Shown here: one piece after another, positions 5,951 to 58,467 of the stretch
Layout of the letters: each line of letters begins with the position of its first letter
How positions within the stretch are numbered: position 1 is the stretch's first letter
NCBI RefSeq assembly: GCF_041260155.1
Contig: NC_091934.1
Location: 42,782,898 to 42,846,897, forward strand
Direction of reading: 5' to 3'
From: Ptychodera flava
Taxonomy: Eukaryota; Hemichordata; Enteropneusta; Ptychoderidae
DNA: 64,000 nucleotides
Notes under the pieces: model-generated
What the model was told of the DNA's origin: nothing
The model's database searches: none
What the model saw: only the letters and a program-made list of their open reading frames with translations
Program-made: the position numbers and the translations under genes

Positions 5951-6880
5951 AAATTCCATCCAATATTGTCGCCAACCTATCCAACTTTCATGACACTCAA
6001 TGCGACTCGTGAAATGCATTCGCTTTGCGCCGCGACTCGTTTGAATCATGCTCCCTAGATTACCTTTGAAGCTCAACTCATTTGATGACTCTGCATTCGT
6101 CTTGCTTTTGAGCTGAACGCAACGTGTCGGGGGATATTCCGTGTTTTGGGGGGCTTGGTTGGGGCGAACCATTTTTGAAATGGGCCCACAGCATGCAGCA
6201 TCCGATTCAAATGAAGACATTTTTGAGTTGAAACATACCACACGTGATTTAGAGTCCACTGCATTTACTTTACTTATGTGAAGGTGATTCTATGTTATGT
6301 TATCGACTCTGATTTTACTTCCAATTGACCGTGCCAGAATGTGGTTCATGGTAGCCAACCCATCATTAAAGTGACCAACTTTGCCATACAACACGAGACG
6401 TCACAGCGCGTCATAGCGACGTCACATGACGTCATTAATATATTCAGGTGTTTTCTGTCATTGTCCTGGGGGATCCAAAAATTAACCCGAAAGTCTGTTG
6501 CGGAAGTCCAGATTTACAATTCCAACAATTTCTCTCTACCTCCATGGTTGTTGTCACAGTTAAAATGCATTTTGTTTCTGTGATGAACACGTCACTCAAC
6601 TTGTCATGTAATGAGAAAAGGATATCCGCGACACCTACGTCGCTAATCAAAGTCACAAACAAGTGCTAAAGTGAAGTATCAAACCTCAAAACAAGCACAC
6701 TATCGTTTGGTGTTGGAACATGTCAATCGGGAACGGTTCTATCGTTCTGGCGATACAATTCCACTTGGATTTCGCTACGTAAATGAACATTAAAAGAGTT
6801 GGATTTTTGAGCGTCTCGATTCTAGTACAATGTAGTCTTTTCGTCACTGTCATTTTTCTAACGTCAAAATATGCAGATTT

Positions 6881-7231
6881 TTGAACATCTTGATCAAGTA
6901 CGAATCGAATATTTCGATGCCATTTGGCTACCATAACATGAACATTACGATAGTCGGGTTTTTGAACGTGTCGATCAAGTACGATTTGCTCATTTCACGT
7001 GGTGAAAAATCGTTCCTTTCCACGGGTATCGCGAATGCGCTCGACGGAACTGAAGACAACATGATTTCCGAGGAGATTCCGGTACTCGATGACGACTTAT
7101 CAAATGAAGCCCTGGGACTCGTGTTTGATGACGAGGGGGAAGATGACGATATAGACTTCGATGGGTTTGACTTCGATGAAGAGGGCAATTGTATTGACAA
7201 ACGCGACATCCGAAGTTTCTTCCGCGCATGA
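6881..7231 (+). CDS. acidic reading frame inside the large element, function unknown
   Basis: The open frame has a convincing C-terminal half: an internal Met at 7061 (MISEEIPVLDDDLSNEALGL), a dense Asp/Glu tract (DDEGEDDDIDFDGFDFDEEG) and a terminal NCIDKRDIRSFFRA before TGA. The N-terminal half resembles translated repeat, so the true start is more likely 7061 or an upstream splice acceptor. It lies near the middle of the TIR element and is the only candidate product of it. It could be the acidic tail of a transposase or an accessory protein. I do not recognise a family. Confidence 0.35.
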   Translation: MNILIKYESNISMPFGYHNMNITIVGFLNVSIKYDLLISRGEKSFLSTGIANALDGTEDNMISEEIPVLDDDLSNEALGLVFDDEGEDDDIDFDGFDFDEEGNCIDKRDIRSFFRA

Positions 7232-8868: not shown

Positions 8869-9446
8869 ACTATGTTGGAACTGTAAATCTGGACTTCCGC
8901 AACAGACTTTGGATTGAATACTTGGATCCCCAGGACAATGACAGAAAACACCTGAATATATTAATGACGTCATGTGACGTCGCTATGACGCGCTGTGACG
9001 TCTCGTGTTGTATGGCAAAGTTGGTCACTTTAATGATGGGTTGGCTACCATGAACCACATTCTGGCACGGTCAATTGGAAGTAAAATCAGAGTCGATAAC
9101 ATAACATAGAATCAGCTTCACATAAGTAAAGTAAATGCAATGGACTCTAAATCACGTGTGGTATGTTTCAACTCAAAAATGTCTTCATTTGAATCGGATG
9201 CTGCATGCTGTGGGCCCATTTCAAAAATGGTTCGCCCCAACCAAGCCCCCAAAACACGGAATATCCCCCGACACGAATGCGTTCAGCTCAAAAAGCAAGA
9301 CGAATGCAGAGTCATCAAATGAGTTGAGCTTCAAAGGTAATCTAGGGAGCATGATTCAAACGAGTCGCGGCGCAAAGCGAATGCATTTCACGAGTCGCAT
9401 TGAGTGTCATGAAAGTTGGATAGGTTGGCGACAATATTGGATGGAA

Positions 9447-9776
9447 TTTGGCGAGAGCCGAATGAAGTCGGCCAGAGTTGGGTCGCATTGGACGAGAGCC
9501 GAATGAAGTCGGCCAGAGTTGGGTCGCATTGAGCGAGAGCCGAATGAAGTCGGCCAGAGTTGGGTCGCATTAAGCGAGAGCCGAATGAAGTCGGCCAGAG
9601 TTGAGTCGCATTGAGCGAGAGCCGAATGAAGTCGGCCAGAGTTTGGTCGCATTGAGCGAGAGCCGAATGGAGTCGGCCAGAGTTGGGTCGCATTGAGCGA
9701 GAGCCGAATGAAGTCGGCCAGAGTTTGGTCGCATTGAGCGAGAGCCGAATGAAGTCGGCCAGAGTTGGGTCGCATC
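9447..9776 (-). repeat. 41-bp minisatellite, right array
   Basis: About eight copies of the 41-bp unit in inverted orientation relative to the left array, with scattered single-base changes. It is broken off by a nested foldback at its right edge. Confidence 0.9.
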
Positions 9777-10356
9777 ACAGGCGACCCAATAAGTACTACT
9801 GAGTTTTTCACAGTGTTTTCTCTATCATTTTCTCTTCTTTCTTCATGCTCTGAATGATCGGAATAAATAAAATAAATGGTTTATATAACATAACCTAGCC
9901 TCTGTGACTCTTTATTTATTTTACACTCCATTACAAGGACGTATATCTCTCATACACACATGCTGTAATTAATTAGTCAACACAACTAATTATGCTAATC
10001 CGTGGACTTATCAGGGATTTTACGGGTTGGTCAACATCGCGAAAGATAGGAATGGTTACTCCTTTTTCATTAACATCACTATCTTTCCGATGTTGACCAC
10101 CCTCTGATAAGTCCACGGATTAGCATAATTAGTTGTGTTGACTAATCTATTACAGCATGTGTGTATGAGAGATATACGTCCTTGTAATGGAGTGTAAAAT
10201 GAATAAAGAGTCAAGTGGCTATAGGTTAGGCTATATAGTCATTTATTTTATTTACTACGATCAGTCAGAGCATGAAGAAAAGGAGAGGGACTGACAGTGA
10301 CAGAGAAAACTGAGAAAAACTCAATAATAAGCTTATCAATATGTATGGGCCGCCTA
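9777..10356. mobile_element. foldback element nested in the right minisatellite
   Basis: Two arms of roughly 250 bp pair across a short centre near 10030-10060. Both contain CTAATTATGCTAATCCGTGG or its complement, GGACGTATATCTCTCATACA and a TTTATTTTATT run. The end words are AGGCGACCCA and its near complement. 41-bp repeat units lie on both sides (9447-9776 and 10357-10435), so it inserted into the array after the array formed. No coding sequence. Confidence 0.75.
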
Positions 10357-10435
10357 TGGTCGCATTGAGCGAGAGCCGAATGAAGTCGGCCAGAGTTCGG
10401 TCGCATTGGGCGAGAGCCGAATGAAGTTTGGCTCA
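10357..10435 (-). repeat. 41-bp minisatellite, remainder beyond the nested foldback
   Basis: Nearly two units of the same 41-bp repeat, leading directly into the right terminal inverted repeat of the large element. Confidence 0.85.
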
Positions 10436-10475
10436 AAATGTAAGGTGTTAATTTTGGCATGGATCACGCGCCATA

Positions 10476-10949
10476 CGGCAGATGTGCCATGATATTTCAA
10501 CAAAGTTGCTTGCTATTTAGATCTAGCTGAAAACAAAAACCTTTATGAAACAGGCTAATCCAGTCCAAGCTTGATGAAATCGATGCTTTGATCTGCTTTC
10601 CAAAGGACGATTTCCGGAAATGGTCTAGCCGGTTACATGCCACTAACGCAAATATTCATTACGCACGTGAACGCATAAAACATGTTGCAGTTACTGGTTG
10701 CTTGTTTTCCCTTGTCAGCTATATTTTGATGACATTTTATGCTGGGATTATGATTGGTTCAATTGAAATGATGTGACAGCACTAAAACTGCTTCTGATAC
10801 TTGATTGGATTGTAGTAAAATTTATCATTAAATTCATGGGATATTTTGACAGATCATTCAAGATAACATCAGCAGACACATTGGCAGCGCTGTGCAGTGG
10901 AGAGAACGCGCTCAAACCTCTGAGTAAGTCCGCTCAACGGCTATGCTTA
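10476..10949. other. no feature recognised
   Basis: Unique sequence between two mobile elements. Two short open frames (10588-10776, 10773-10964) have no motif I recognise. Confidence 0.45.
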
Positions 10950-12645
10950 GGAATGGACCGTTAGACCTTGGGAGGGGGTGGTCAAAAATAAAAAATAAAA
11001 ATTTCAGAGCAGAAAGTCAGAAAAAAAAATCTTCAAACTAGTTTGCAAAATAAAAAAAAATAAATAAGAAGACAAATGCGTAAAAAAAAAATCTGAGAAA
11101 GTCTTTAAAATCTTGAATTTTTTTTAGATTTTACCGACAGGAAGCAACTTTCTGTATTTAGTAGATCCTCCAGGCACATTTTTAATTTTAATTTATACAT
11201 TTAGAGTGACTGTATCCCTTATACTGGAAGTTATGATTATCTTATCTTTTCAGGACTTTTGTATTCTGATCACTTGAAAATTATAAAATTATAGAGCCTG
11301 TTTTCTACTTGTTTCCTGCGTACAAACCAAGCAGGTACACTAGGTAAAACATTGAAACTATGGTATGGTTGTCAAGACAGAAAGTTATATTTGCCTTTTA
11401 AGATCAAGGTAAACAGATGCAGGCCACATCAGGTTCATTTTTTTTCACAGCATTTTATTGCAATGATGAATGCAAGAATGGGTGAACAAGTAGAAACACG
11501 TCAATAATGATAAAACAACATACCAAGTCATTATGTATTATTTTGCTTTTGAAAAGGCATTTTCAATTCTTTTTTCTCAAAAGACAGCCTCAAAAACAAC
11601 AGCAACACATTTTTTAACATTCAACAATACACTACGTAGAATGCCATCTATCCAACAAATCCCAACACAAAAACACACAAAAGGGTTGAACTTTGAAAGT
11701 TTCTCGATAGCAAATACTGAATAAATCTGCATGAATAATCGTTTGTGTGTAGTAAATGCTGAATGACAATTATCTGAAGAAATTTTCCACCACAAAAAAG
11801 AGCATGATTTAAACAAATCTTAAGGGACTTATGTAGCGAATTCAAAAGAAATTGGACAAGCCCTTTCAGAGAATACAGATTTTTTTTGGACCATGAATGG
11901 CATAAATTGCCCTAAAAAGACAATTATTGAAATTTCACCACATCTATACACATCCAATCAGTTTGGACATGCTGCTACAGAGAAATGGATGTTTTGATCA
12001 AAAAGGGCAACAATTGCTGTAAAAACACAAATATGCAAATTTCACTATATTTTGCAAACAGCTTCTCAGCTTCTCAAAATCAATTGTAAATCATGAGGTA
12101 TGCATGATGTTTGGTGGGGTGAATGTAGGCATTTCACCATGCAGTAGAAAGGGAAGCCAGCAAACCAAAATAGTCAATATTCAAAACTATAGGAAGCTAC
12201 TGTTTCAGATGAAGATGTGTAATTTGAAAAAAATGCTCCCCAAGTGCCACCAAATAACACCATTTTAATCTCTATTTTTCAAAAACTCCAATGGCGTCCC
12301 CCTCCTGACCTCCCCGCAAAAATACTCCCCAAGTGCCACCAAATAACACCATTTTCATCTCTATTTTTCAAAAACTCCAACGGCAGGGGGGACACACCCC
12401 CCTCCTGACCTCCCCCCGTGACCGCTTGCGCGGCCGCTTGTGGTGCTTTGCACCACATCTTTGCCCTCTTTATCCTCAGACAGCGACGAACTAAAAAAAT
12501 TATAAATCTGAAAATTTACTCTGAAAAAAAATAAGCACAGCTAATCTCAATTGGAAAAAAATTTTTTTTAGAAATTTACAATAGTAAAAAAAAATTTCAC
12601 AATTTCATTGTGACACCCCCCTCCCAAGATCTAATGGTCCATCCC
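10950..12645. mobile_element. PIF/Harbinger-like non-autonomous element, copy 1
   Basis: Starts GGAATGGACCGTTAGACCTT and ends with the inverted form (GATCTAATGGTCCATCCC). It is flanked by TTA on both sides (10947-10949, 12646-12648). A 3-bp TWA duplication with GG-starting inverted repeats is the hallmark of PIF/Harbinger elements. It has no transposase. The interior holds A-runs, fragments resembling the pearl core repeat near 11860-12060, and a doubled segment containing CTCCCCAAGTGCCACCAAAT. Confidence 0.75.
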
Positions 12646-13975: not shown

Positions 13976-14001
13976 GTGGAAAAATTCGGCCAGTGGTGTA
14001 A

Positions 14002-15633
14002 GGACGGACCATTAGATCTTTGGAGGGGGGTGGTTAAAAACAGAAAAAAAAATTTCAGAGCAGAAAGTTAGGAAAAAAAAATCTTCAAACTAGTTTGCAA
14101 ATAAAAAAAAAATAAATAAGAAGACAAAGCATAAAAAAAAAATCTGCAAAAGTCTTTAAAATTTTGAATTTTTTTTAGATTTTACCGACAGAAAGCAACT
14201 TTCTGTATTTTTTAGTACATCCTCCAGGCACATTTTTAATTTTAATTTATACATTTAGAGAGACTGTATCCCTTATACTGGAAGTTGTGATTATCTTATC
14301 TTTTCAGGACTTTTGTATTCTGATCACTTGAAAATTATGAAATTATAGAGCCTGTTTTCTACTTGTTTCCTGCGTACAAACCAAGCAGGTACACTAGGTA
14401 AAACATTGAAACTATGGTATGGTTGTCAAGACAGAAAGTTGTATTTGCCTTTTAAGATCAAGGTAAACAGATGCAGGCCACATCAGTTTCATTTTTTTCA
14501 CAGCATTTTATTGCAATGATGAATGCAAGAATGGTTGAACAAGTAGAAACACGTCAATAATGATAAAACAACATATCAAGTCATTATGATTATTTTGCTT
14601 TTAAAAAGGCATTTTCAATTCTTTTTTCTCAAAAAACAGCCTCAAAAAACAACAGCAACACATGTTTTAACATTCAACAATATACTACGTAGAATGCCAT
14701 CCATCCAACAAATCCCAACACAAAAACACACAAAAGGGTTGAACTTTGAAAGTTTCTCGATAGCAAATACTGAATAAATCTGCATGAATAATCGTTTTTG
14801 TGTAGCAAATTTCAAAGAAATTGGACAAGCTCTTTCAGAGAATACAGATTTTTTGACCATGAATGGCATAAATTGCCCTAAAAAGACAAATATTGAAATT
14901 TCAACACATCTATACACATCCAATCAATTTGGACATGCTGCTACAGAGAAACAGATGTTTTGATCCAAAAAGGGCAACAATTGCTCTAAAAACATAAATA
15001 TGCAAATTTAACTATATTATTTAGCTTATTTGAGCTTCTCAGCTTGTCAAAATCAATTGTAAATCATGAGAATATGCATGATATTTGGTGGGGTGAATGT
15101 AGGCATTTCACCACGCAGTAGAAAGGGAAGCCAGGAAACCAAAATAGTCAATTTTCAAAACTATAGGAAGCTACTGAGGAGCAAGAAGACCATGTTTCAG
15201 AGGAAAATGTGTAATCCGAAAAAAATGTGCCACCAAATAACACCATTTTTATCTCAATTTTTCAAAAGCTCCAACAGCCTCCTGACCTCCCCCCGCAAAA
15301 ATACTCCCCAAGTGCCACCAAATAACACCATTTTAGTCTCTATTTTTCAAAAGCTCCACCAGCAGCAGGGGGACACTCCTCTCCTGACCCCCCTCCCCGG
15401 TGACCGCTTGCATGGCCGCTTGTGGTGCTTGGCACCACAACTTTGCCCTCTTTATCTTCAGACAGCGACGAACTAAAACAAAAATAATAAATCTGAAAAT
15501 TTACTCTGAAAAAAAAAAATTGCACAGCTAATCTCAATTAGAAAAAAAAATTTCAGAAATTTACAATAGTAAAAAAATTTTTTCACAATTTCATTGTGAC
15601 CATCCCCCCTCCCAAGGTCTAATGGTCCATCCC
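14002..15633. mobile_element. PIF/Harbinger-like non-autonomous element, copy 2
   Basis: Collinear with copy 1 over its whole length. Ends are GGACGGACCATTAGATCTTT and GGTCTAATGGTCCATCCC, flanked by TAA (13999-14001, 15634-15636). Copy 1 used TTA, so both obey the TWA rule, which supports two independent insertions over a segmental duplication. No transposase. Confidence 0.8.
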
Positions 15634-31509: not shown

Positions 31510-31671
31510 ATGCCTACTTCAAGACAAACCAAGAGAAAGAGGCAACAATACAAAAGCACTGATGATGTCACGCCAGCGATTGAGATTCAACGTAAAAAGA
31601 GACATGTCAAGAATGATGTTAACTGCAACACCGATAAAGAAAATTCAGAAACTGACTTATTATTACCAAAG
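31510..31671 (+). CDS. DDB2: DDB2 coding exon 1
   Basis: 54 codons, [16 protein letters not shown] to LLLPK, ending in phase 0 before GTATTT. Disordered, Lys/Arg-rich, probably carrying the nuclear localisation signal. Confidence 0.85.
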
Positions 31672-34600
31672 GTATTTATCCAATCTGCTAAATACATACT
31701 TTTTCTCAGTCTTTTTTAAGACACTCGTTTCCTTGATTTAAAGGGACAATAACAAAAACTATCGATGACATCATTGATTATTTTTGTTTGATTAAACAGG
31801 TATTTTGTTCTTCATTCCCATTAAAATGGGTTGAAAAACCATGTATCAGCCCTTCAGAAAAGAGCTTAGTATACAACATGTAATTTCTTTTGGACAAATG
31901 ATTTATGTATTTGGACTGAAATTCATTTTTTGAATTGGGGCATCAAACACACACATGTACAAGCTTTATTGACAGATTAAATGCATTTATTTTATTTGCT
32001 CAACTGGTAAGACAACAAAAACTAAATTTTACAAATAGAAAGATTTCACCCATTATATGAAAGCACTTTGTGATATACAAATCTTTTTCTCGCCAACAGT
32101 TCTCATTCTGTGGAGGAAAGGAGCGGAGGGTGCCAAACATTCCCATAATTCCCCCTGTCGGTAAAAACAGCAACAATCTAATGCATCACATGTACAACAC
32201 AGTACTTGGAAGATCAACTCAAAGTAACTTGAGAAAGGTAATGAGTGTTACATTGCCCAAACACAGAAACATTCTTGTGAGTCAATTTTTGGATTGTAGC
32301 AGCTGTGTTTTAAACTTCTACTACCTTCATATGAACCTCAGTGCCATAGTCAAGGTCAGAGGTACCATATTTTGTGCTCAATTAGACAATATGATATTAT
32401 CATAGAATTAGGAAAAAGTTGATATATTGAAATCCTTTGATAAACACATATATAAAGACCTTATGAGACTGCACTACCACCAGCAGATTAATCTCAGTAA
32501 ATTTCTGGGAAACTTCACTGACTAGATTTACTCTCTATCAGAACTATCACTGCAAACCTAGTTAAAAAGGTCACTCCTGTCCTTTCAATGGTGACAGGCC
32601 ATTTCTGATTGTTTACAGAAATATTACAATTGTGCAGATCCAGACATGTTATATCCAGAAATATTTCTTTGATGATGTCAATATTGACAGTATATCTGAA
32701 AATCTTAGGTATCAGACAGAAGAGGAGATGATAATAATGATCTTCATTGCATTTAGATGCAGCGGTTTCCTAACCCCCATTGTATGTCATTTACAGTGTT
32801 TAGCACAGCCATTCATCCGTATGTTGTCCAATTCACGACTCTTCCGCACTGCCAGCCCCTTTGACAGGAGAGTGACTGCCCTGGAATGGCATCCCACAGA
32901 ACCATACACATTGGCTGCAGGGTCAAAGGGCGGTGACATCATCCTGTGGAATCATGCCAGGGTTGACAAACAGGAATTCATCTCAGGGGTAAGCAGTAAA
33001 AGATATACTGTACATGTAGTTCTACAATTCTATTGATTTACATGCTTAAAGCTTGATGATATTCGTGCTACAAGAAGGCATGCGGCAAGTTGTGGACCAG
33101 ATATGAACTGAAAATGCTCACGTGTTTCATTATATATTGCATTTATGTGCAAGTTTGAACCTTTGCTACATGCTTTGCTACATTTTAAGTGTTATGATCA
33201 ACACAATGATTTCACCACAGATCAATTCTAAGGTCATTAAGTATTCAAATATGTAATTAGCTGAAATAAAAATAATTAATTTCTTTGAGTACTGTCATTG
33301 TATCACAATATAGCATGTGTAATTACCTTTGGTCAAGTCCTTCAAGCTCTATATGCCAAACCGTGACAGCTTGTTAGCTATTTATGCAAATTATGAATTA
33401 GCTGACATGAAAATGCAAAATGACTTTCAATACTGTTATAACCTGGTATAATGATCAATGTACACAGCATGTTTCGCCAAATTTTATCAAGTAAATGCCA
33501 GTATATATCCCTAATTTGGAAGGTTCATTAAATATGCATATTGGGAATTGGCTGAAAAAAATGTCAAATGACTTTCAATAATCTTGTATCATAGTATCTT
33601 TAATGTACATAGCAAGTTTTGCCAACTTTGGTCAAGTCAAAACAGATAAATATCGCTAATAAATGCGGGATATCGGACCGCAGGCGGGCGAAGATTGCAT
33701 TATAAGCGCGCCACCCAAACTCACTGCATGGACATCACATTTACGAAATCGAAGTCCAAAGTCAACTACGTCATTGTTAGAATAAGAGAGGTTTTCCATC
33801 ACACGGGAGCATACCACCACAAATTTTGCACAGATGGCGTTGCACTGGCATTGAAAAAGGGTGCATGGGAGCATGGGAACGCGGGCAGTTTCCCTCGCTA
33901 TGGGTAGGAAATGCATTGAGCAAGACACACTTCCGGGTTCGCAAAAAAACGAGGATCCCATTTACGGGGCGCTCAAATATAACTATTTGCTGTGATACAT
34001 AGCAGAGGCGTATATGTTTGTGATGCTGAGAATAACATCAGTAATAAATGACGGGTTTTAAAAGTTGACGTTTTTTGCGATGAAACAGACTTCTGAAGGT
34101 AGCTCGCTTGGGGAACACGTCATCCCGGCCGCTGTCCGCTTTGACCCCAGTAATTCACACTGGTTTTGGTCGGCCCCAGGTACCCGAGTCACTTCGACCC
34201 CGTCACACTTTTGCCTACATGTCCACGGAGACGATTCAACATGTTCCACAACAAAGCCAAGACAAAAATTGAAAATATCAATAAAATAGCTTCACAAAGG
34301 CTGAAATACACGATACTCGATGAAGTATGAAGTTTATGAAATGAAATCAAAATTGACAACACAAGTGTTTGTCTCGGGTAATACCACTTGAAGTTGAACT
34401 ATTCTACAGACTGTTTTTCCATACAGTGCAGTATTTGTCAGTGACAAATTAATCTTTGCAATACATTTTTTTGCGATGAGCTGGAAATTTGATTAATATC
34501 GAGTTAATGTACATAAATATTCCGCTATTTACTGGGACACGTTTATTTTCTCGATCCGCTATCTGCGGACTACGTGCTGAAGTACATTGACTGTTCATGT

Positions 34601-35747
34601 CAACGATCGTTTCTCCCTCTGCAGAGTTTCTGTATCCCGTTCACAACAACGCTGTACCTCGATCACACGATAGTGACGCTATGTAGCTGTGCAGTATTGA
34701 AACTTATCATAAAATGGCCACCTCGTCTAACAGTAACACGTATTGTCGGGATTATCGTACGGAAAAAAGCTGCAAAAGTAAGACTTATGAATCTTCATCA
34801 GAATTGAACACATCATGATTGTACACGAGTATCAACCGTGAATGCACGTTGAGCTCGGCAGTTACACAAGCATGGTACGCTACATGCATAGCCCTACGAG
34901 TATGGCGACAGTGTCCGGCTTTGGCTACGCCGGGGGCTACGCCGCCTACCGGAGGTGGGAGGCGGCGTAGCCAAAGCCGGACACTCTCGCCATACTCGTA
35001 GGGCTAGCTACATGCACTGCCGCGATGCCGATCGTATGCATTCCAAGGCCTATCCCGGAATTTGTTTCACAAACAACCTCAAAGGAGAGCAAACATACTT
35101 CTATGGACAATGACGAATACGTTTCTTGGCGAAGCAAATCAAAACAGTGCAGAAGTACATGAAGTAGGTCATGGCCTTGGACTCTGTGCACGAACCTGAT
35201 TGGACACTTCAATACCTTTGACCCAAAGTTATTATTCATCAGCACTTCCATGCCATGAGGCTAGGTAGAGAACGTATTAGCCCTGCGTACGATGCTGTGT
35301 GTTCCGCTACAGCTAATAGCCCCGCTCACCACAGCCCTGCAAAGACCCGTACGTAGAGTTGGTGACTTCAAATCCATTTTTGGACTTGACGTAAAAAGCC
35401 AAATTACTGCCGAAGTTCAGCGTTCTTGGGCCCAAGTCGTATCCCTGCCTACCTCAGCTACTCGATCGCTTCCAAAAATGCCAGTCTTTTATTCTTTTTT
35501 CGTAAATAACCGTCGATGTCGGCAACTCTCTCGCTAGCCCTGCGTACGTACGCAGTGTACGCTGTGTGTTAGGAACGCACACAGGGAATGCACAGCGTAC
35601 ACTGCGTACGTAAATTAAAACTTTCATAACTTCATTAATATCCAAGCCACGCCCACCAAAACCTTTTCAGTTCTAGCCATTTGAATTCTGAAGATGTCTA
35701 CCAAATTTGACTGAAATACGTTCAGCCGTTTTTGAGAAAATGGACCC

Positions 35748-35786
<39 letters not shown>

Positions 35787-38700
35787 TCGCTGCGACATAT
35801 GCTCACGTGTTCACACGTGAGCAAAAAATGTCGTGTAACAGGCCTTAAATTTGCCAAATCAGCACAAAAAATAGACTTACGTGTAAAACCTTCCTATAAT
35901 TTACCCTTGTTTTGTCATGACAATGGATATGAGTGAATATTTATTTCAAGCAAAGTTGCGGAATCATTCAATTTAAGTTCCAGGGAATTTCAGCTTGTGT
36001 CTGAGTACTGATGATAGATTCTTAAAAAAGATATAAAAACAGATGTCCCTTGCTTTTTCAGATTGGACCAGGTGGCAATATTTCATGCATCAAATTCAAC
36101 AAAGATAACCCAACTCAGATTTACACTTCATCACTAGATGGGGAAGTTAGATTGCAAGATTTTAATGGCAATTACAAGAAAATATTCCTTCAGACAAATG
36201 ACTGGGGGTAAGAAACAAAGGGTTTCAGGATCAGAAACATGGTTTTGTCACTAGACTGGTGTTTCTAGGATATTTCAGAGTAAATTTTTACCTGAATTGA
36301 GAGACACAAGTGTCGTCCTCAAAGTGTACTTGTGTACTAATGGAAATCGAAAGTCTGTCTTTCAGAAAAAAAACCCAAAAAAATCTTCATATAGGGCCAT
36401 AGAGGGTAGCAAACTTTTTCGTATAAAGTTAATAGTCAGATGTGTGTCATGTGAAAATGTAGCTAGGGTTAGTATAGTACCACAATCAACTTTATTCAAG
36501 AAAAAACAAGTGAAGTACATGTATGACATAGAGGGCAGCACAATTTCTAGTAGATATGCAGTGACTGAATTCAGGAATTGAGATATCATGCAGTGATAAG
36601 CAGTGCACATTTTGTGTCTTTATCTTATTTAAGAAAAATCTGCCGCTCTTGATACATATTTATTTCCAAGGAAAAAGGTGGAATGTAGTTTTGAAATCAG
36701 TGTAACGGAATGATCCATAGAGTTGCACTTGTCAGCTGACAAGACCATGGTTCACAGGTCCAAATTTTACTGTACTTTACAAGTTGCATGTGACATCTTT
36801 CATTTAACTCCTACTTTATCCTGCTTAGATTGGCAAGGGAGGATCCATCACTGCCATGAAATTTAATCTGGATGATCCTTGTAGTGTCTTCACTTCTTCC
36901 ATAAATGGCACAGTCAGCTTACAAGATTTCAATGGCAAACATAATCAGATACTCCTCGACACATGTGACTGGAAGTGAGCACCACTTTTTCCTTTTGCAG
37001 TGTTTAATGACACATGTGTCCACTGACATGCTGTGTCATCATGACCGCTTTTGACCTGTTAGATTAACCTGAAAGACAATCACAACATGCAATATTTTCA
37101 TATTTCATATTTTCATATTGGCATGTAGTTTGAAAAGAAAATATTGTCAACTTGAAATGTGTATGCATGAATCTTGTGTAAGGGAACATGTGCCATTTCT
37201 ATAATTCAGTTTGAGGCAAGAGGCAAGGAAATGTTTTCTATTTTGTATTTGCTTTTGAGGTATGGATGCATAGATTTCAAGATAAAACCATCTCTTTCAG
37301 TCTTAAATGAACATGCAAGATGCACTGAGTCTCATAAAATTGTTGTCAGGTACATTTTAAGTTCGTAGTTCATAGGCCTATCTGTCTGCATGAGTTGAAG
37401 ATTTATAACTTTCACTCATCAAAAGTTTTCACCCGAATTTATCAGTTCCAACATATTCTCTGAGATTTCAAGTCAGCAACTGCTTAGTCATTCTATGGTG
37501 CAGAACAAAGCACCCCTAATTTTACCCAACCTTACTTATTTTTATTTTAGTTACTGGTACTGTAGTGTAGATGTCTCCTACACTGCCAATCTCATAGTGA
37601 CTGGTGATAACGTTGGTAACACTGTATTGCTGAGTAGAGATGGCAAAGAGGTGAGTGTGAATAAGCCGATGTGTATGCATATGTGGATTTTCTAAAAGCA
37701 AGTTTTAAGGTCATTTAATATGCAAGCCAGTGAAACAGTCAATTACCATCATGTGTGAGGTCAGCTACTTGATATATTTGGTAGAAGAATAGTGCCTGAT
37801 CAAGAGAGGGGTAACTACTGTGTATGAAGGTTCCATCATCGAAGATTGATTTAGTTAACAGCAGTAGCTAAAATAGTATGCAGGCAGAATTCTTAGCGGA
37901 GAACCATTGATATCTGGGGGGATATGGAGGATTTTGAGAAAAAAAAATTTGTCACCAGGTGAGAGAGAAGAAAAAAAAAATGATCCTGTCATGGCCTGAG
38001 AAAAAAAAAATTGTCATAACAGACAGAAGAGAAAAAAAAATTGTCACAATGCACCAGAAATAAGCAAAATTTGGAAACCTTATTCTCATGTATTCTTTGG
38101 CGGCACGCCGCCATAGGCGGCGCAAATGTTTTACCACAAGCAATTCTTATGTTTCTTTTCCCAGCACTTATGATAAAAGCATGCACTACATAGGTCTACT
38201 TTACACCTCAGTACACTCAATGTTTTCCTTCCCTTTTCTGACCCAAGAATCATATTTCAGGATTTCTGTTGCACTATCTCAATGGCATAGGCACTATCTA
38301 AAGGGGACTATTTGACTTCTGTAAATTGTGAAAATTTAAAACACAAGACAGGAGTCAATAAACTAGTGTTAAACCAATATATTATTTTCTCAATATAAAT
38401 TTGTTAGAAAGATGTAGCTTGACAATGAAAAATTGAGGAATAACAAATATAATGAAATACAATGTGTGAGCCTTGTTTTTCTGACCACAAACACCGGATC
38501 ACAAACATACCATATTCAGGCTTTTCATTAGAAGCTGGCAGCTGGAGAAATGACACAAGAAGGTCACAGATTTTCCGTTCCTGTATATTCATTTGTCTTC
38601 AGTCTCTGGCAAACAGAACTGTTTTTCACACATTGTATTGTCATTGTTTGGTTGTTGAATATTGTGACTCAAAAACTGATCACGCAAAAAATGTAAAAAA

Positions 38701-41700
38701 TATCAGTGTTCAATGTCATTTTCAAACAGTTTTACCGAGTGCAAAATAAACTGAAACTCCTCTCACATTGCACCATTAAACACATCAATTTCTCAAAATT
38801 CCCAATACGAGAGGGGGAACCCCCCTCTCGTGCTCTCCCCCTTGGGGTATTCTGACAGTTTCACTTAGTTAAAAAAAATTCAAAAACACCTCTCAGATTG
38901 CACCAGACTGCACCATTGCACACATCTATATGTTAAAAATTTCCATCCAAGATAGGGGAAAGCCCCTGTGACACTTTCCCCCTAAGCCTCTCTCATGTTC
39001 TCCCCCTGTACTTTCAAATTCTGCCCGGTCAGATATCCTAGTGAAAACCCTGTCATAATATCCATCCAAATTAAACAATATACTATATAATTAGATACTG
39101 CGTGATCTTTTATATCTTTATTTTATTGTGATTTGAATTTCATTTTGATGTGTTCACCTTTTTTGAACCATCATGAGATAACTGATGATAGTCTAGCAGG
39201 GTACATCAGGATTTGAAAGGTCTTTACTGTTGCTGTATTTTGTAAATTTTACAATTACATGTATTGGTATTAAACTTTTCTAAGTGGGGGATCAGTCAAA
39301 ATTTCAGAGTTAGAGAGGGAGGTTACTCAAATTCATCATGGTTGGCGGGGGGGGGGGGTCACTCGAAATTTCGGAGTTTCAGGCCGTAAATAATGACGGC
39401 TCCCTTTACAACGCATTACAAACTTGATGACCAATAAAAAAAAAAATTTGCACTGCTACTCCATTTGAAAAAAAAAAATTGATGCAGGTCTGACAGTAGA
39501 AAAAAAAAATTTCTGTCACTCTGACAGAAAAAAAAATTTGCTTCCATACCCTTTTCCTCCATACCCCCCCCCCCCCCCAGAAATCAAATGGTTCTCCCCT
39601 TACCATGTTACAGAGCAGGCCTGCGGTAATGACACAAGACAAGCTTAGCAAATCATAAATTATTGGAAAATAGTGGAATTCCGTATCTTTTATTATGTTT
39701 CTTTTCAAGTAACTTTATCAAAGAACAGTTGTTATAACAAAGTAAAGTCAGCTTTCGAAATTTGCTTCATTACTATTTTTTGTTGCACATGGCAGCTGTG
39801 GAAATACAGGCTTCACAAACAGAAAGTCAGCCACTGTGAGTTCAATCCGCAATGTGATTGGCTGGTGGTGACTTCATCAGTTGACAAGACTGTGAAATTA
39901 TGGGATATACGGATGGTGAAGGACAGGAAGAGTGCCCTCCATGTGTTGGAGCATCAGAAACCAGTCAATTCAGGTAGGCTAGCCTATGCAGCTTTAGACA
40001 AATTTTCCAAAAACAATTCATGATGAGATATATCTATTTACTGACATGATAAATTTGAAATCACTGCTATACGTACAAGCAGGTTAATCATAAATATTAC
40101 AGATACCTGCGCTGATAATCAGGCCTCCATAGTGTTAACCTGATAACTACCTCAGATCTTGGTGTACAAAAAAAAATCGAAATAAGTCAAATATAGAGCA
40201 GGAAGGTAACTGCAATGCTCACCTGCCTGGTTAAAAATTGATCTGCCAGGGGCAAGAAGATAGGCAGGTAATTTTGACTTTGTTATTTAGATTTATGAGC
40301 TCTTCAGTATGCCATGACCTTGCGCCGAAAACTTTTCACAATGAAGGTACATCAGGTTAACACTGCCAATGATCCCTAGGTTGTCAACAGTTTGTAGTTA
40401 CCGTAGTGTATTCTTTGTATTACAGCTTACTTCAGTCCAGATAGTCACCAGTTGCTTACAACAGATCAACACAATGAGATTCGTATCTATCAATCACCTG
40501 ATTGGAGTAGAGTGAAGCAAACAATCGCACATCCTCACAGGTTCTTCCAACACATCACGCCAATCAAGGTCAGTGAAATATGCCAAAGGAGGGAAATCTT
40601 AATCCCAAGACAAGGCATGACTTCAAGATCTTTCGAGTAAAAGATGTTTAGGATGTTCCAGTCTTTCGGTGATGTCTGGTATATTTGTGTTGATTACTCA
40701 ACACATGTCATCCAACCTCTGCAATGCTATGGGAGTCTTTTTGCTCAGTACTTGACATTTCAACTCTATGTGTTGTAGATCTCGTGTTAGGTCTGATGTA
40801 CAGTAATCATAACGCGTTTCAGTTCTGGTCAAATTTCTGTGTACAGTAGGTATACACAGTGCTGCAACATACCTGTAGAGCAACATTTGTAATTGTCTGA
40901 ACATTTTTTTAAATCTGTCCAGGCAACATGGCATCCAGTGTGTGATTTGGTGGTTGTGGGACGATACCCTGATGAGAATTTCCCAGGATATGTCAAGAAT
41001 GAGGCAAGGACTATTGACCTATTTGATGCAAATACAGGAGAAATTGTCTGTCAGCTTCATGATCCTAAAGCTCCAGGACTGATTTCGGTAAGGAAAACCT
41101 CTGGCTGCATCCTGATTTGCATAAATTATATGCTTAACAGATATTGGTCAATCTAGGGTTAGTTACAATAACAAATTGCAATTTCCTGAATTTGTATGTC
41201 GTGTTACAATTATACAGAACTTAACATTTTATTATTTATGAATGAATGAATATTTTTTGCATTTGTGGGCTTCCAGCCCCTATACATTATATTTCATATA
41301 TTTATGTTCTGCAATATTGTTCTCTCTTTAGGTAGACATGGACTTATATTCCATAATTTCTTTCCCAGTTTAACTAATCATGCATAAATGTACCTTATTG
41401 TTCACTGGAAATCTTATCAGGATTAGAGTTCTTTGACAGTTTCTCAACTTACTCAATCCTCGCGACTCAAATACCTGAAAGTCAACAAACAAAGTAATAT
41501 GGTTTTTTTTTCTCTTTCTTGAAATAATAAAAATAGCTCAACAAATTCAACAAAAGTGGTGATGCACTAGCCTCTGCCATGGGTAAGTTGTAATGTGATT
41601 GGAAAGTTCATTCTTAGGAAGTAATTATAATTAATACTATGGATTTGAAATACCAAAAAACTAGATTCTTCTCATCTCACATTGGAAAAGGTTTGTGGCA

Positions 41701-42380
41701 TGTGCAGGTTGAGTGGCAAACATGTGTAACTTCATTGCAACACGTTTGGGCTGACAGCTGACATACTAGGGACGAGTATTATAACAGCTAAACTTTACCT
41801 GTTGTAGGATAGGATAGGATAAATAATTTATATACATGTAACAGTGTGTCAACATTGGAAGACGTTCACTGCCTGGTGCTTGACAAAAAAATTTTACAGA
41901 TAAGATCCCTTAAAGAATTGATACTTTGTCTGGAAGCAGATAGTAATCTCAAAACCAGATAAGACCGGTCAGAAGAATTGACTCATGCATTTGGTTGAGT
42001 TCTAATTCTTGTAGAAAGCTGTTGAATGGTCACCCTTCCTCACTTGCCAAGTACAAACAAACATTTTTGACAAAGATTACCATGACAAAATCATCACCAT
42101 ATTCTTTCTCTTAATGACAAATTGTATTCATATTGTCAGTGCCAATTCAGGGGTAATTTACTAGTCTATCTTATTTCACATTGAAGGCTACAACATTCTC
42201 ATCTGGCTTGAAGACAAAGATATTGAACAAAGACAGCAGGAACTGGTGGAAAAGATGAAGGCCCAAGGCATTGCGCCGAAAAGCAACCAAACACAGACCA
42301 GGAGAAGGCAACGAAAGACTGACTCAAAGATGGATGCAGCAACTAAAGCTAAAATTGCTGCTAAGCTGCAGCAGAGATAA
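31510..42380 (+). CDS. DDB2: DDB2, UV-damaged DNA-binding WD40 protein (spliced, about 487 aa)
   Basis: DDB2 is the damage-recognition subunit of the nuclear UV-DDB complex: with DDB1-CUL4 it finds UV photoproducts and starts global nucleotide-excision repair. Ten coding positions with GT/AG borders and matching phases give a continuous frame of 1464 nt using one of two versions of exon 4. The N-terminus is basic ([16 protein letters not shown]). The WD40 part keeps residues known in human DDB2: PFDRR (R112), GSKGGD (K132), W at human 203, HKQKV (K244), WDIR (R273), LLTTDQ (D307) and the FQH hairpin ([10 protein letters not shown]). After YNILIWLED a basic helical tail of about 50 residues extends beyond the human end (427 aa). 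Introns hold several mobile elements. A poly(A) signal lies at 43716. Identification is very secure. Confidence 0.96.
32100..32237 (+). CDS. DDB2: DDB2 coding exon 2
   Basis: 46 codons in phase 0, [20 protein letters not shown] to QSNLRK. It corresponds to the helical N-terminal region that contacts DDB1 in the human protein (human VRTLHQHKLGRASWPS segment). Confidence 0.88.
32797..32988 (+). CDS. DDB2: DDB2 coding exon 3
   Basis: 64 codons in phase 0, ending ...KQEFISG before GTAAGC. Contains [20 protein letters not shown] and [11 protein letters not shown], the first WD40 blade with the residues equal to human R112 and K132. Confidence 0.95.
33180..33655. repeat. about 140-150-bp diverged tandem repeat in DDB2 intron 3
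   Basis: Three units share ATTAGCTGA, AATGACTTTCAATA, AATGTACA and CAAGT words. Resembles pearl-type core repeats but lacks a microsatellite or hairpin end here. Confidence 0.55.
34714..34777 (+). other. possible orphan first exon in DDB2 intron 3
   Basis: AAAATGGCC start, [20 protein letters not shown], then a GTAAGA donor in phase 1. It follows a CpG-richer segment (33656-34710). It cannot splice in frame to DDB2 exon 4a or 4b, which need phase 0, so it is not an alternative DDB2 start by simple splicing. Confidence 0.25.
34889..35006. mobile_element. foldback with 10-bp flanking duplication
   Basis: 43-bp arms starting TAGCCCTACGAGTATGGCGA pair with one mismatch around a GC-rich centre. 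GCTACATGCA lies directly on both sides (34879-34888, 35007-35016). This is the clearest target duplication among the foldbacks. Confidence 0.8.
35545..35612. repeat. foldback, 22-bp perfect arms
   Basis: TACGTACGCAGTGTACGCTG(TG) at 35545-35566 is exactly inverted at 35591-35612. Confidence 0.8.
35630..35830 (+). mobile_element. pearl-like element, fourth instance (short), DDB2 intron 3
   Basis: A core-repeat fragment (ACCAAATTTGACTGAAATAC, CGTTTTTGAGAAAATGGAC) runs into a GACA microsatellite (about 35750-35785), then a 10-bp-stem hairpin TGCTCACGTG/CACGTGAGCA at 35800-35823 followed by an A-run. Same end architecture as the other instances. Confidence 0.6.
36062..36207 (+). CDS. DDB2: DDB2 coding exon 4a (alternative)
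   Basis: 146 nt, enters in phase 0 after CTTTTTCAG and leaves in phase 2 before GTAAGA. Encodes [16 protein letters not shown] through [10 protein letters not shown] to TNDWG, equal to human residues 153-201. It keeps the Arg of human RLQDF. About half of its residues match exon 4b. Confidence 0.92.
36829..36974 (+). CDS. DDB2: DDB2 coding exon 4b (alternative to 4a)
   Basis: Also 146 nt with the same phases (0 in, 2 out), acceptor CCTGCTTAG and donor GTGAGC. Encodes [16 protein letters not shown] through [10 protein letters not shown] to TCDWN, homologous to 4a and to human 153-201. Joining 4a to 4b, or skipping both, shifts the frame and meets an early stop, so one or the other must be used. 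Open throughout and with good splice sites, hence not a decayed copy. Confidence 0.9.
37551..37650 (+). CDS. DDB2: DDB2 coding exon 5
   Basis: 100 nt, phase 2 in, phase 0 out. Encodes [33 protein letters not shown]; the Trp aligns with human W203. Donor GTGAGT. Confidence 0.94.
37896..39599. mobile_element. PIF/Harbinger-like element in the intron between DDB2 exons 5 and 6
   Basis: Starts GCGGAGAACCATTGATATCT and ends with the inverted form (ATCAAATGGTTCTCCCC), with TTA on both sides (37893-37895, 39600-39602). The ends share ACCAT and G-run words with the copies at 10950 and 14002, so it is a related family. The interior has A-runs and a short C-rich palindrome near 38812-38834. No transposase. 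Confidence 0.7.
39796..39973 (+). CDS. DDB2: DDB2 coding exon 6
   Basis: 178 nt, phase 0 in, phase 1 out. [16 protein letters not shown] and [15 protein letters not shown] carry the residues equal to human K244 and R273, both sites of xeroderma pigmentosum E mutations. The acceptor has a poor pyrimidine tract (GTTGCACATGGCAG). Confidence 0.94.
40426..40568 (+). CDS. DDB2: DDB2 coding exon 7
   Basis: 143 nt, phase 1 in, phase 0 out. [20 protein letters not shown], then [15 protein letters not shown] with the FQH hairpin that inserts into damaged DNA. Confidence 0.95.
40923..41087 (+). CDS. DDB2: DDB2 coding exon 8
   Basis: 55 codons in phase 0. [40 protein letters not shown]; matches human [20 protein letters not shown] and following. 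Confidence 0.95.
41537..41582 (+). CDS. DDB2: DDB2 coding exon 9
   Basis: 46 nt micro-exon, phase 0 in, phase 1 out: [16 protein letters not shown], equal to human LNEFNPMGDTLASAMG. Donor GTAAGT. Confidence 0.93.
42187..42380 (+). CDS. DDB2: DDB2 coding exon 10 and stop
   Basis: Completes Gly, then [20 protein letters not shown], a charged helix, TRRRQRK (possible second nuclear signal) and [15 protein letters not shown] before TAA. The tail after IW is about 50 residues longer than in human. Confidence 0.92.
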
Positions 42381-53056: not shown

Positions 53057-53403
53057 GGCAATAATTTCACTTCAAGTGTCACCAAACAGCTACGATAGTT
53101 CGAGTCGGTATAGTTTCGCTGTCAAACTGTAATGCTCGACACTTGCAATAACCATTGACAGTAGTTTCTCTACTGTCTATGCAATAACTGAAATGTTTAA
53201 TGTGTGTTCAAATTACAGAGAAGTCGGACATAGTCAGGCTTTTTTCTTTTGCATTTACATTTCAGGCCATCTGGTGAGAAATACTATACTTTACCGTTTT
53301 GAAATTGTAAAGCCTGAGCTCTGCAATTCATGATTGACAAATGTTCATCTGATTTGCATGATAATTCCTGGACCAATGAGAAGCAAGAACATCGTTACAC
53401 TGA

Positions 53404-54184
53404 CAGCACGCCAACTGGCATCAAGTCCGAAGTTCTGTGGACTTCAAAGATATCGCTCACATTGAGAATATTGAATATTCCTTTGCCAAACTCACCCTGC
53501 GCGGCGCCAACATCATCCTTCCAGTATTCGTTGACGAAGAATCGCCTGATTACGATGTCAGTTGTGACAACAAGGTCGCAGTGCGCGCTGAGTTGTGAAT
53601 GCCATTCCACTGTCGCCATTCCGGGGTTAGAAATCCCTAAAATAGGCGCACATCAAGTGTACTGCTCGGTCACCGATCTCGATCCTAAGTACACAATGAG
53701 AACACCACCAGCAAGTTGGATATCACTGTTCCGCGGAGGAGTCGTGGGCCAAGATGGTTATATTTCTTATTACTGTGTCAGAGTGAGCGACTTAGCGGAC
53801 GTGGCCGGCTTGCAAGTGTACTGCACCATAAAACGACGTGACTCCAAGGGCCAATTCTGTTGCCCGTTCCCAAAGTGTCGCTTCGTTACAAGGGGCACTG
53901 AATGCATTATGAAGACCCACTGCAAGCGTACTCACATGTCGCCGTTCTTCTGTAGAGAGTGCGGCGATGTCTTTGACAGTCTCCGGGGAGTTGAACGACA
54001 CCGCCGACGAAAACAGCACACGACTTCCGACCTGGGACCGACGACGACGAACAGCATAGCTTCAGCGGGGGAAACAGGTCGCGCCAATGAACTTGAAACT
54101 ATGTCGAAGTTCCGTTACGCTGCAGTTGTACACTTCATAAGAAGATTTTCTAAATTGGTGGAAATCATCGACAAAAGACTTTAG
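53404..54184 (+). pseudogene. uncharacterised two-finger C2H2 protein with an apparent frameshift
   Basis: The first 64 codons (53404-53595) read naturally in one frame: QHANWHQVRSSVDFKDIAHI, SFAKLTLRGANIILPVFVDE, ESPDYDVSCDNKVAVRAEL, then TGA. Around 53590 the sense moves to the frame that ends at 54184: CECHSTVAIPGLEIPKIGAH, GQDGYISYYCVRVSDLADVA, then two C2H2 fingers, CPFPKC-x13-HCKRTH and CREC-x12-HRRRKQH. After the fingers come a Ser/Thr linker and a short basic helix. A longer frame from 53330 is open but its N-terminal third is an out-of-frame shadow. One base explains the shift, so it is either a recent pseudogene or an assembly error. AATAAA signals at 54366 and 54410 suggest a real transcription unit. 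Function unknown; nucleic-acid binding is inferred. Confidence 0.5.
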
Positions 54185-56392: not shown

Positions 56393-57217
56393 TTATACAA
56401 AATAAACTTCTATATTCCGTTTTTTCTGTTCACAAAAAATCTTTTCAGACATCATGTATGCCATGTATAATGTTGCTATGACAATAATTCCGACGATGGT
56501 AGCCGATTCAATCTTCATTGAAATTGCGTGGTTGTGTTTATCATGAACCGATGTCACCGTCTCCTCCTGACCCGGGCGAGTGCTGAAGTTAATGCAACGT
56601 TGCCTGCTCACTTGTTTTGGGGGACCTGACACAAACACTGTGGCACAGACAATGAAGCGGGAGTCTGGGTGTAGGTTACCCAGGGGGTGTTTAATTGTCA
56701 CGTGATCTCCGATCGAGTGCGCATGAGGCAGTTCAAGTCTGGTGGCGTCTTTGATCACATTCGTACTTCCGGCGACGTGATATTTAAACAGTATATATAG
56801 AAAACTGTGTCCTGGTATTTTATTGTTTGCAACAACTGAAACCACCAAAGTAGCACTCTCACTTGTGACTTCATTTTCTTCGATCGTCATAATCGGTCCG
56901 TCCAACGCCGTTTCGGTACTTGCCCAATCAATGAGATAGTTCACGAGATATCCCTCATAGTCGGTAGTTGGAAGCACAACTTTAGGGTGCACATGTGTTA
57001 TAGCGTCCATGATGTCATCGCGACCTGTCTGTGACACTTGAGTTTCATCAGTCAAATAAGCAGCGTCAGTATTGTATCTGCAGTGGACAAGCATTTTACC
57101 CTTGTCAGTTGTCTTGCATTCACACGTCTCTGGACATGACGGTAAACTTGAAACTCCAATTAGTGAGACAGAAAACAAGTGAAGGAATGTTACGACCGGA
57201 ATGAATGGTATTTTCAT
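56393..57217 (-). CDS. single-pass membrane protein: LRRNT-type cap, FN3 domain, no leucine-rich repeats
   Basis: 274 aa. Residues 1-24 are a signal peptide (VVTFLHLFSVSLIGVSS). CPETCECK...HC (Cys 28, 32, 34, 46) has the spacing of an LRR N-terminal cap. No LRR unit follows; instead a 55-residue linker leads to an FN3-like domain at about 105-214. Its end, FIVCATVFVSGPPKQ...RCINFST, has the two Cys and the C-x-N/S-F-x-T closure typical of FN3 domains in LRR-FN3 neuronal adhesion proteins. Residues about 237-257 (ATIVGIIVIATLYMAYMM) are the membrane span, with a short basic cytoplasmic tail. Type I topology is inferred. A TTTCTTACAG acceptor at 57230 just upstream implies a non-coding 5' exon, and the whole protein lies in one exon. 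Ligand and function unknown. Confidence 0.75.
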   Translation of the reverse strand: MKIPFIPVVTFLHLFSVSLIGVSSLPSCPETCECKTTDKGKMLVHCRYNTDAAYLTDETQVSQTGRDDIMDAITHVHPKVVLPTTDYEGYLVNYLIDWASTETALDGPIMTIEENEVTSESATLVVSVVANNKIPGHSFLYILFKYHVAGSTNVIKDATRLELPHAHSIGDHVTIKHPLGNLHPDSRFIVCATVFVSGPPKQVSRQRCINFSTRPGQEETVTSVHDKHNHAISMKIESATIVGIIVIATLYMAYMMSEKIFCEQKKRNIEVYFV

Positions 57218-58467
57218 TTCATCTGGAATCTGTAAGAAATTATAAAAAAGTTCATAGATAATTGATTATATGTCGATATAGTTGGTACTCATGCAGAATG
57301 AACTATCAAAATGTAAAAATGACAAAAATTCAAAATACATGGAATATAAGCTTTGTAAATTGTATAGTCGGTGCCTCTGTTGCTGGACCATTTGAAATCT
57401 ACAACGGGAAGAAAATAAGCGTTTCGTAGGATGTAGAACAAATGATATAACACGACTAAAGTAACTTGAATACCATTTATTTAAGCAATAAAACGAGATG
57501 TTGACCAACTCTCGACGTACAGTGCACGAGTTCTAGCAAGTGCATAAACATGGAGTGAACTGGTAAAGCCCGATTGCTTTAGCCATTGCTTAGTTGGTTT
57601 TATTGCTAATATATGCTATACCTATTGCTGAATTCGTTTACTACTACTATATGCATTCATGCTATAGATCTATATTCTGGCGTGAAATTTCTCGAACTGA
57701 GAGCTCGCTCGTCTTCAAACCATATCGCGCTTATACCACTGTCTTTTCACGTCTCGACCGATCAGATCGCTGTATTTGCGACATCAATATACTGGTATGA
57801 TACAATAACCGATTATCAATGGATAGGCTACAACCTTAAACGAGCCCTTACGCTAAATTAACTTAGAACATCCTCCAATAAAATAAAAACCATTGTTGTA
57901 TGTTCGACAATGGCCAAAAAGTGTCAGTTGGTTAGTACAGGTTTATGTAATGCCTTCCTACTTGACTGTGATAGTGCAATGTATTCTGTAGGTGAAACCC
58001 AATACAATTACTAATGGGGCTTCTGCTGGGAGTGCACTAGTTTTGTCATTATTAACTTGGTTTCCCAGTTAATGTATCGCGACAAAACAAGATAATCTGT
58101 AAGTTGAAACGAACCCTCAACATTGATAGCTCAGTAATGTAGTGTAAACGTTGGCGGGTCTGTATATCTGTTTAGGCGCATTCTACCTAATCAAACGAGT
58201 AATGGATTGGATACAATGTAGGGAATATGACCGGATAAGTGCGATGAACCTTAAATGAGAAATCCAATTGGCTTTCCATGGCATAGCGAGTGATATTTTG
58301 AATTGAAATTCCCGAGGTTAACTCGGTAAATTTGTTGGGCAGGTGTTAAGTATACATTAATTAATCTGTCTATCTCCCGTCCCTCGACTCAGTGTCAGTC
58401 GAAATCATAGGACGATAGCTTGATGTTCAGGGTTTTAATTGCATGGTCGTAAGGATGAAATATTAAG
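57218..58467. other. upstream intron of the membrane protein gene, nothing else recognised
   Basis: AT-rich. Short frames at 57594-57861 have no motif. A leader exon may lie here, but I cannot place it. Confidence 0.4.

What the first reader, a model, noticed from the sequence alone, without database searches (positions are those of the whole stretch)
36062..36974. DDB2 carries two interchangeable copies of one WD40 exon (4a and 4b)
Seen: 36062-36207 and 36829-36974 are both 146 nt, both enter in phase 0 and leave in phase 2, both have good splice sites and open frames, and 26 of 49 encoded residues match. Both align to human DDB2 153-201. Using both puts 4b out of frame and soon reaches TGA; using neither makes exon 5 start out of frame and reach TAG within five codons. 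This is the signature of mutually exclusive exons. Human DDB2 has one such exon. The Arg of the human RLQDF stretch is kept in 4a and is Ser in 4b, so the two isoforms may differ on a blade surface near DNA or a partner. The divergence suggests old, selected duplication.
Basis: partly seen in the sequence, partly recalled or inferred. Interest (0 to 1): 0.88.

Follow-up and report, generated by a model that had tools for sequence, protein, structure and literature searches.

The report
DDB2 with two swappable lesion-pocket exons
This animal's gene for the UV-damage sensor DDB2 carries two alternative versions of one exon, only one of which fits the reading frame at a time, and that exon appears to build most of the pocket that grips the damaged DNA, so the animal may be able to switch how it recognises damage by splicing.

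Summary
36062-36207 (4a) and 36829-36974 (4b) are both 146 nt, enter in phase 0, leave in phase 2, have AG/GT ends, and share 26 of 49 residues. They lie in an otherwise intact DDB2 gene (31510-42380). Either copy alone gives a 487-residue DDB2; both give TGA at 36857; neither gives TAG at 37563. Exon 4 is the only exon with a second copy in the window. Codon-position differences of 17/9/28 and saturated synonymous change against dN 0.35 show that the pair was long kept coding. Mutually exclusive exons is the best explanation, but no transcript or relative could be examined.

A better one emerged. Human exon 4 is residues 153-201; five of the six residues reported to touch the cyclobutane dimer lie in it. 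The swap changes two of them: 155 (Pro in 4a, Lys in 4b) and 201 (Gly or Asn), the latter codon completed at the splice junction. Hypothesis: splicing exchanges the lesion pocket. The kind is known; this case was not found in the papers searched.

The parts
31510..31671 (+). DDB2 coding exon 1 (start codon at 31510), 162 nt
   Evidence: spliced model open, 487 aa
32100..32237 (+). DDB2 exon 2, 138 nt; start of the region aligned to vertebrate DDB2 (DDB1-binding helices, by recalled knowledge)
32797..32988 (+). DDB2 exon 3, 192 nt, ends in phase 0; blade 1, with the counterparts of human R112 and K132
36062..36207 (+). exon 4a, 146 nt, phase 0 to 2; blade 2 version with G-P-G and W-G at the lesion-contact positions
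36829..36974 (+). exon 4b, 146 nt, phase 0 to 2; blade 2 version with G-K-G and W-N at the lesion-contact positions
36208..36828 (.). 621-nt intron between 4a and 4b, too long for steric exclusion
37551..37650 (+). DDB2 exon 5, 100 nt; its first base completes the codon of residue 201 (GG|T Gly or AA|T Asn); holds the counterpart of human W203
39796..39973 (+). DDB2 exon 6, 178 nt; counterparts of human K244 and R273 (WDIR)
40426..40568 (+). DDB2 exon 7, 143 nt; F-Q-H hairpin
40923..41087 (+). DDB2 exon 8, 165 nt
41537..41582 (+). DDB2 exon 9, 46 nt (poor polypyrimidine tract by the matrix used)
42187..42380 (+). DDB2 exon 10 with stop codon, 194 nt; basic C-terminal extension beyond the aligned end of human DDB2

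Best explanation
Exons 4a and 4b are a mutually exclusive pair made by tandem duplication of DDB2 exon 4, which encodes a whole WD40 blade (blade 2). An mRNA that can be translated to the end must contain exactly one of them, because 146 nt is not a multiple of three: double inclusion or double skipping meets a stop codon more than 600 nt upstream of the last exon junction and is expected to be destroyed by nonsense-mediated decay (the stops are shown; decay is inferred). A splicing regulator, not found here, would bias the choice. Most likely consequence (inferred): the two isoforms keep the same DDB1-binding and hairpin machinery but differ in the pocket that holds the flipped lesion, because the two ends of exon 4 supply five of the six residues reported to touch the cyclobutane dimer in human DDB2. 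4a has Pro155 and Gly201, 4b has Lys155 and Asn201 (human numbering); 4a also has two acidic residues in the B-C loop (DGE) where 4b has none (NGT). I expect 4b to bind damaged DNA more tightly or to favour cyclobutane dimers, and 4a to differ in affinity or lesion range. The stated confidence is for the mutually exclusive pair, not for the pocket effect, which I put near one in three.
For: Exact gene model with identical length, phase and AG/GT ends in both copies, and premature stops for both or neither. Both copies identify as DDB2 at the same place. Codon-position differences 17/9/28 of 48; dN 0.35 with pS 0.75, saturated, by counting, and dN 0.31 with dS 1.59 by LWL85. None of 20000 simulated neutral decays of 4a to the same 54 differences kept 26 identical residues (best 25). 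Neither copy looks like the dead one: of 24 residues shared by human and zebrafish, 4a keeps 16 and 4b 14, p 0.77. 4a-4b identity (26/49) is near human-zebrafish identity of this exon (24/49), and the only blastn similarity of note between the two flanking regions is the exon itself, so the duplication is old. Contact residues: passages of PMC12606344, mapped; of the 13 listed contacts outside exon 4, 12 are kept in both isoforms and I394 is Leu.
Against: No transcript evidence and no relative: the window's own genome is not held, and four collection scans gave no DDB2 of another animal. Recent loss of one copy is not excluded: at 0.05 neutral substitutions per site 4b would still be open with AG/GT in 64% of simulations and 4a in 56%. 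4b's donor beats only 1 of 8 other donors of the gene. Differences between 4a and 4b are not concentrated on the assumed DNA side (7 of 15 loop positions, 16 of 34 elsewhere), and 2 of 5 contact positions differ against 23 of 49 overall. Both copies are less conserved than the rest of the protein compared with zebrafish (19/49 and 20/49 against 182/300; p 0.005 and 0.012), less clearly so with human (22/49 and 20/49 against 164/303; p 0.28 and 0.09). Zebrafish and human themselves differ at 155, 200 and 201, so the pocket tolerates change. A review says that the pocket does not give lesion specificity but limits lesion size and chemistry (PMC7555853, passage). No competing RNA pairing was established.
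Confidence: 0.78

Rival explanations
1. One copy (more likely 4b, with the weaker splice sites and lower match scores) is a recently silenced or rarely used exon, and the animal makes essentially one DDB2.
For: 4b has the weaker acceptor and donor (2.19 and 2.84 bits against 7.18 and 4.23), its donor beating only 1 of 8 others, and the weaker PDB match. 4b keeps fewer human-zebrafish shared residues than the rest of the protein (14/24 against 137/164, p 0.010). An exon drifting for 0.05 substitutions per site stays open with AG/GT in 64% of simulations.
Against: 4b's acceptor beats 4 of the 8 other acceptors of the gene; 4a and 4b do not differ in retained residues (p 0.77) and 4a too is below the rest (16/24, p 0.087); no frameshift, stop or lost AG/GT in 146 nt after saturating synonymous divergence.
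Confidence: 0.13
2. The pair is mainly a level control: co-inclusion or co-skipping makes premature-stop mRNAs that tune the amount of DDB2 (unproductive splicing), and the two proteins are equivalent.
For: Both-included and neither-included forms carry stops 750 and 620 nt before the last junction.
Against: A pure poison exon needs no kept protein sequence, yet 13 of 49 residues are identical in 4a, 4b, human and zebrafish, and dN is low against saturated synonymous sites.
Confidence: 0.06
3. Assembly or haplotype artefact (a collapsed paralogue or misjoined allele).
For: None found.
Against: The copies are 90/146 identical in DNA and the flanking introns show no extended similarity, far beyond allelic difference; no other exon is repeated in the window; the 64000 bases hold no N.
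Confidence: 0.02

Closest known systems
Human coronin-1D exons 5a/5b (PMC3203266, passages)
   Same: Two mutually exclusive exons, each encoding almost a whole blade of a WD40-type propeller; made by exon duplication.
   Different: An actin-process protein, pair reported in all tetrapods; the passages seen do not speak of a swapped ligand pocket.
FGFR2 IIIb/IIIc (seen as a reference title; details recalled)
   Same: Two homologous exons swap a ligand-contacting half domain and so change ligand choice; NMD acts against wrong combinations.
   Different: A growth-factor receptor, not a DNA-lesion sensor.
Human mutually exclusive exon clusters of Hatje et al. (PMC5740500, passages)
   Same: Similar length, frame and sequence; 377 (60%) of the clusters have lengths not divisible by three, as here.
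   Different: Those were validated by splice-junction reads; 'DDB2' occurs 0 times in the main text of that paper (its supplements were not seen).
Vertebrate DDB2 (PDB 3ei1, 4a08, 9j8w and others)
   Same: Same protein: 182/300 (zebrafish) and 164/303 (human) identical outside exon 4.
   Different: One version of residues 153-201 in the PDB chains; here two.

Membership tests
Mutually exclusive exon pair | Adjacent internal homologous exons | tested here: met
   26/49 residues, E 1.1e-12 in the window
Mutually exclusive exon pair | Same length and phase, AG/GT splice sites | tested here: met
   146 nt, 0 to 2, AG/GT; matrix scores within the range of the gene's other exons, 4b's donor near the low end
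Mutually exclusive exon pair | Each exon alone gives an open reading frame; both or neither does not | tested here: met
[quoted passage not shown]
   no RNA data at hand
Mutually exclusive exon pair | Pair kept in related species | tested here: inconclusive
   no relative in three scans; a fourth gave 47 loci, all with titles naming bacteria
Exclusion by steric hindrance | Donor to branch point under about 50 nt | tested here: not met
   intron of 621 nt; branch-like motifs looked for in its last 80 nt
Exclusion by U2/U12 mismatch | A U12-type site in the cluster | tested here: not met
   no U12-like donor in the gene; acceptors and branch points not scored for this
Exclusion by competing RNA pairing | One docking site complementary to a selector beside each exon | tested here: inconclusive
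   four layouts; observed score reached in 55, 24, 47 and 3 of 100 shuffles, not corrected for four tests
DDB2 | Homology over the propeller and the helical region before it, with the F-Q-H hairpin and WDxR | tested here: met
   zebrafish 8e-143; residues

The most novel reading that the evidence does not exclude
A DNA-damage sensor whose photolesion pocket is exchanged by alternative splicing: the choice of exon 4a or 4b sets residues 155 and 201, the latter written across the splice junction, and with them the affinity for or range of lesions (cyclobutane dimer against 6-4 photoproduct or abasic site), perhaps by tissue, life stage or light exposure.
Probability: 0.33. Interest if true: 0.85.

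Novelty: new member of a known kind. Interest (0 to 1): 0.6.

Why it matters
DDB2 is the sensor that finds UV lesions in chromatin, and it accepts quite different lesions in one pocket. A natural pair of isoforms that differ only in the blade lining that pocket would be a ready-made experiment: same protein, same partners, two pockets. It would also put lesion recognition among the functions that an animal can tune by splicing.

Tried and rejected
Own genome: none held. Relatives: viral contigs with exon 8 and with alignment A1, and genome contigs with A1, gave none; genome contigs with the exon 6 alignment gave 47 loci, all with titles naming bacteria and partial matches, taken as ordinary bacterial WD40 proteins from titles and match lengths alone and not examined further. 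So there is no dN/dS per copy, no dating and no test of conservation.

Steric hindrance and a U12-type donor rejected. Docking and selector pairing: no convincing signal; one of four layouts reached 3 of 100 shuffles.

Enrichment of 4a/4b differences on the DNA-side loops was looked for and not found (7/15 against 16/34). The charge argument is mixed: 4b is more negative overall (-2 against 0 for 4a); only the assumed DNA-side loops favour 4b (0 against -3), and there human and zebrafish (-2 each) are nearer to 4a. The loop assignment is mine from propeller register, not from coordinates.

Structure prediction was not run: the spliced protein is not read letter for letter from one stretch of the window, which that tool requires.

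Papers: ten searches. Those that pair DDB2 with mutually exclusive exons or exon duplication listed 8, 1 and 0. Of the 8, two with most DDB2 mentions were looked into by passages: PMC9858704 uses the term only for event classes, and PMC11264951 reports intron 2 retention in mouse Ddb2; the other 6 and the 1 were seen as title and abstract start only. [quoted passage not shown] PMC3700808 and PMC4648065 were looked into by passages without use. Nothing beyond this library was searched.

Full report
What is there. The window holds a DDB2 gene on the + strand. Its coding exons are 31510-31671, 32100-32237, 32797-32988, then 4a (36062-36207) or 4b (36829-36974), 37551-37650, 39796-39973, 40426-40568, 40923-41087, 41537-41582 and 42187-42380. 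With either exon 4 the frame is open from ATG to TAA for 487 residues. The 4a protein matches zebrafish DDB2 at 8e-143 and human DDB2 at about 1e-133. The gene looks functional: the residues at human positions R112, K132, W203, K244, R273, Q308, R332, F334, Q335, H336, Y356, R370 and Y413 are kept; I394 is Leu. That these touch DNA is from passages of PMC12606344, except R273, which I recall as part of the DDB1-binding WDxR motif.

Both copies are 146 nt, phase 0 in and 2 out, with AG and GT; 26 of 49 residues and 90 of 146 bases agree. Both included: TGA at 36857. Neither: TAG at 37563. Searching both isoforms against all 64 kb shows a second copy of exon 4 only; other hits were at E 0.49 or worse, one of them a match between two blades of the protein itself. 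Between the two flanking regions the one blastn match of note is the exon itself; next come a 16-base inverted match at E 0.001 and weaker ones.

It is more than chance and more than an old relic. Differences fall 17, 9 and 28 on codon positions 1, 2 and 3 of 48 codons. Synonymous sites are saturated (pS 0.75) while dN is 0.35 by counting; LWL85 gives 0.31 and 1.59. Of 20000 neutral decays of 4a to the same 54 differences, 15% stayed open, the mean identity was 16.5 of 48, and none reached 26. This shows constraint over the summed history of the pair; it cannot show that both are under constraint today. With human and zebrafish as guides, 4a keeps 16 and 4b 14 of 24 shared residues, so neither stands out as the dead copy (p 0.77), but both keep less than the rest of the protein (137 of 164; p 0.087 and 0.010). 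A recently silenced copy could still look like this.

Age. 4a and 4b differ about as much (26/49 identical) as human and zebrafish do in this exon (24/49); each is about equally far from the vertebrates (4a 22 and 19, 4b 20 and 20, human and zebrafish in turn). The duplication is old. Whether it arose in this lineage or earlier with loss in vertebrates cannot be told without relatives; the slightly higher 4a-4b identity leans to the first. The species is not known to me; no animal relative was found in the collections scanned.

How the exclusion works. The 621-nt intron speaks against steric hindrance, and no U12-like donor is present. Competing RNA pairing was tested in four layouts without a convincing result. 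Frame loss is therefore the one shown safeguard: mRNAs with both or neither exon have a stop 750 or 620 nt before the last junction, which by established knowledge calls in nonsense-mediated decay. In human, 377 (60%) of the clusters have lengths not divisible by three, yet reads joining the two exons were found for only 83 of these (PMC5740500, passages), so choice seems usually to be made at splicing. Which regulator would act here is unknown. 4a has the stronger sites and I would expect it to be the default.

What the swap changes. Numbering from PDB chain 9j8w_L makes this exon human residues 153-201, one propeller blade with both its joining loops. PMC12606344 (passages) reports that G154, A155, G156, I200, N201 and W203 touch the cyclobutane dimer, that I200 and N201 read its two methyl groups, and that these two lie away from the lesion with a 6-4 photoproduct or abasic site. 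Five of these six residues are in exon 4. The window has G-P-G and W-G in 4a, G-K-G and W-N in 4b; zebrafish has G-P-G and W-D, human G-A-G and I-N. Residue 201 is written across the splice junction: GG|T is Gly with 4a, AA|T is Asn with 4b. In the B-C loop, by my register next to the place of human K132 in the blade before, 4a has D-G-E and 4b N-G-T. So the exon switch exchanges lesion-facing loops and leaves the hairpin, the basic backbone contacts and W203 untouched. That the isoforms bind lesions differently is inference. Against it: two of five contact positions differ, no more than the 23 of 49 overall; differences are not enriched on the DNA side; human and zebrafish differ at the same positions; and a review holds that the pocket sets size and chemistry limits rather than specificity (PMC7555853, passage).

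The Arg of RLQDF (human R182) is Arg in 4a and Ser in 4b as stated, but Thr in zebrafish and not in the contact list seen. It is unlikely to be the point of the switch.

What is known. Mutually exclusive tandem exons are a well-described kind (PMC9741552, PMC9013439, PMC5740500, PMC6071210, passages), and a swap of almost a whole blade in a WD40 propeller exists in coronin-1D (PMC3203266, passages). No paper describing such exons in DDB2 was seen in the listings or in the passages. I file it as a new member of a known kind, in a gene where the exchanged part would be unusually telling.

Verdict. Mutually exclusive exons: 0.78. A functional difference in lesion handling: about one in three.

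Noticed in passing
window 5720-10475: Long inverted repeats (arms 5768-6109/9291-9632 and 6145-6471/8928-9254, 99% complementary) with arrays of a 41-bp repeat in opposite orientation near both ends: looks like a young fold-back type transposable element (the type is my guess).
   Followed up: partly
window 10948-12505 and 13999-15487: A direct duplication of about 1.5 kb, spacing about 3.0 kb; the two-copy blocks are 79-98% identical, with small shifts in spacing.
   Followed up: partly
window 1699-3742, - strand: Broken open frames that by eye resemble the endonuclease and reverse transcriptase of a non-LTR retrotransposon (recalled motifs); the two pieces scanned against Pfam gave no family at E 0.01.
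   Followed up: partly
window 56393-57265, - strand: A 290-residue open frame whose part from an internal Met looks like a secreted or membrane protein, with a Cys-rich start and a hydrophobic stretch near the end (by eye); no Pfam family at E 0.01.
   Followed up: partly
window 53318-54184, + strand: A 288-residue open frame with Cys/His pairs that by eye resemble C2H2 zinc fingers; no Pfam family at E 0.01.
   Followed up: partly
window 34890-35010: A hairpin seen by eye inside DDB2 intron 3 (two facing copies of a stretch around TAGCCCTACGAGTATGGCG), probably the trace of a small inverted-repeat element; a repeat scan with a 60-nt minimum did not list it.
   Followed up: no
window 42187-42380: DDB2 ends in a basic extension of about 49 residues beyond the aligned end of human DDB2.
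   Followed up: no
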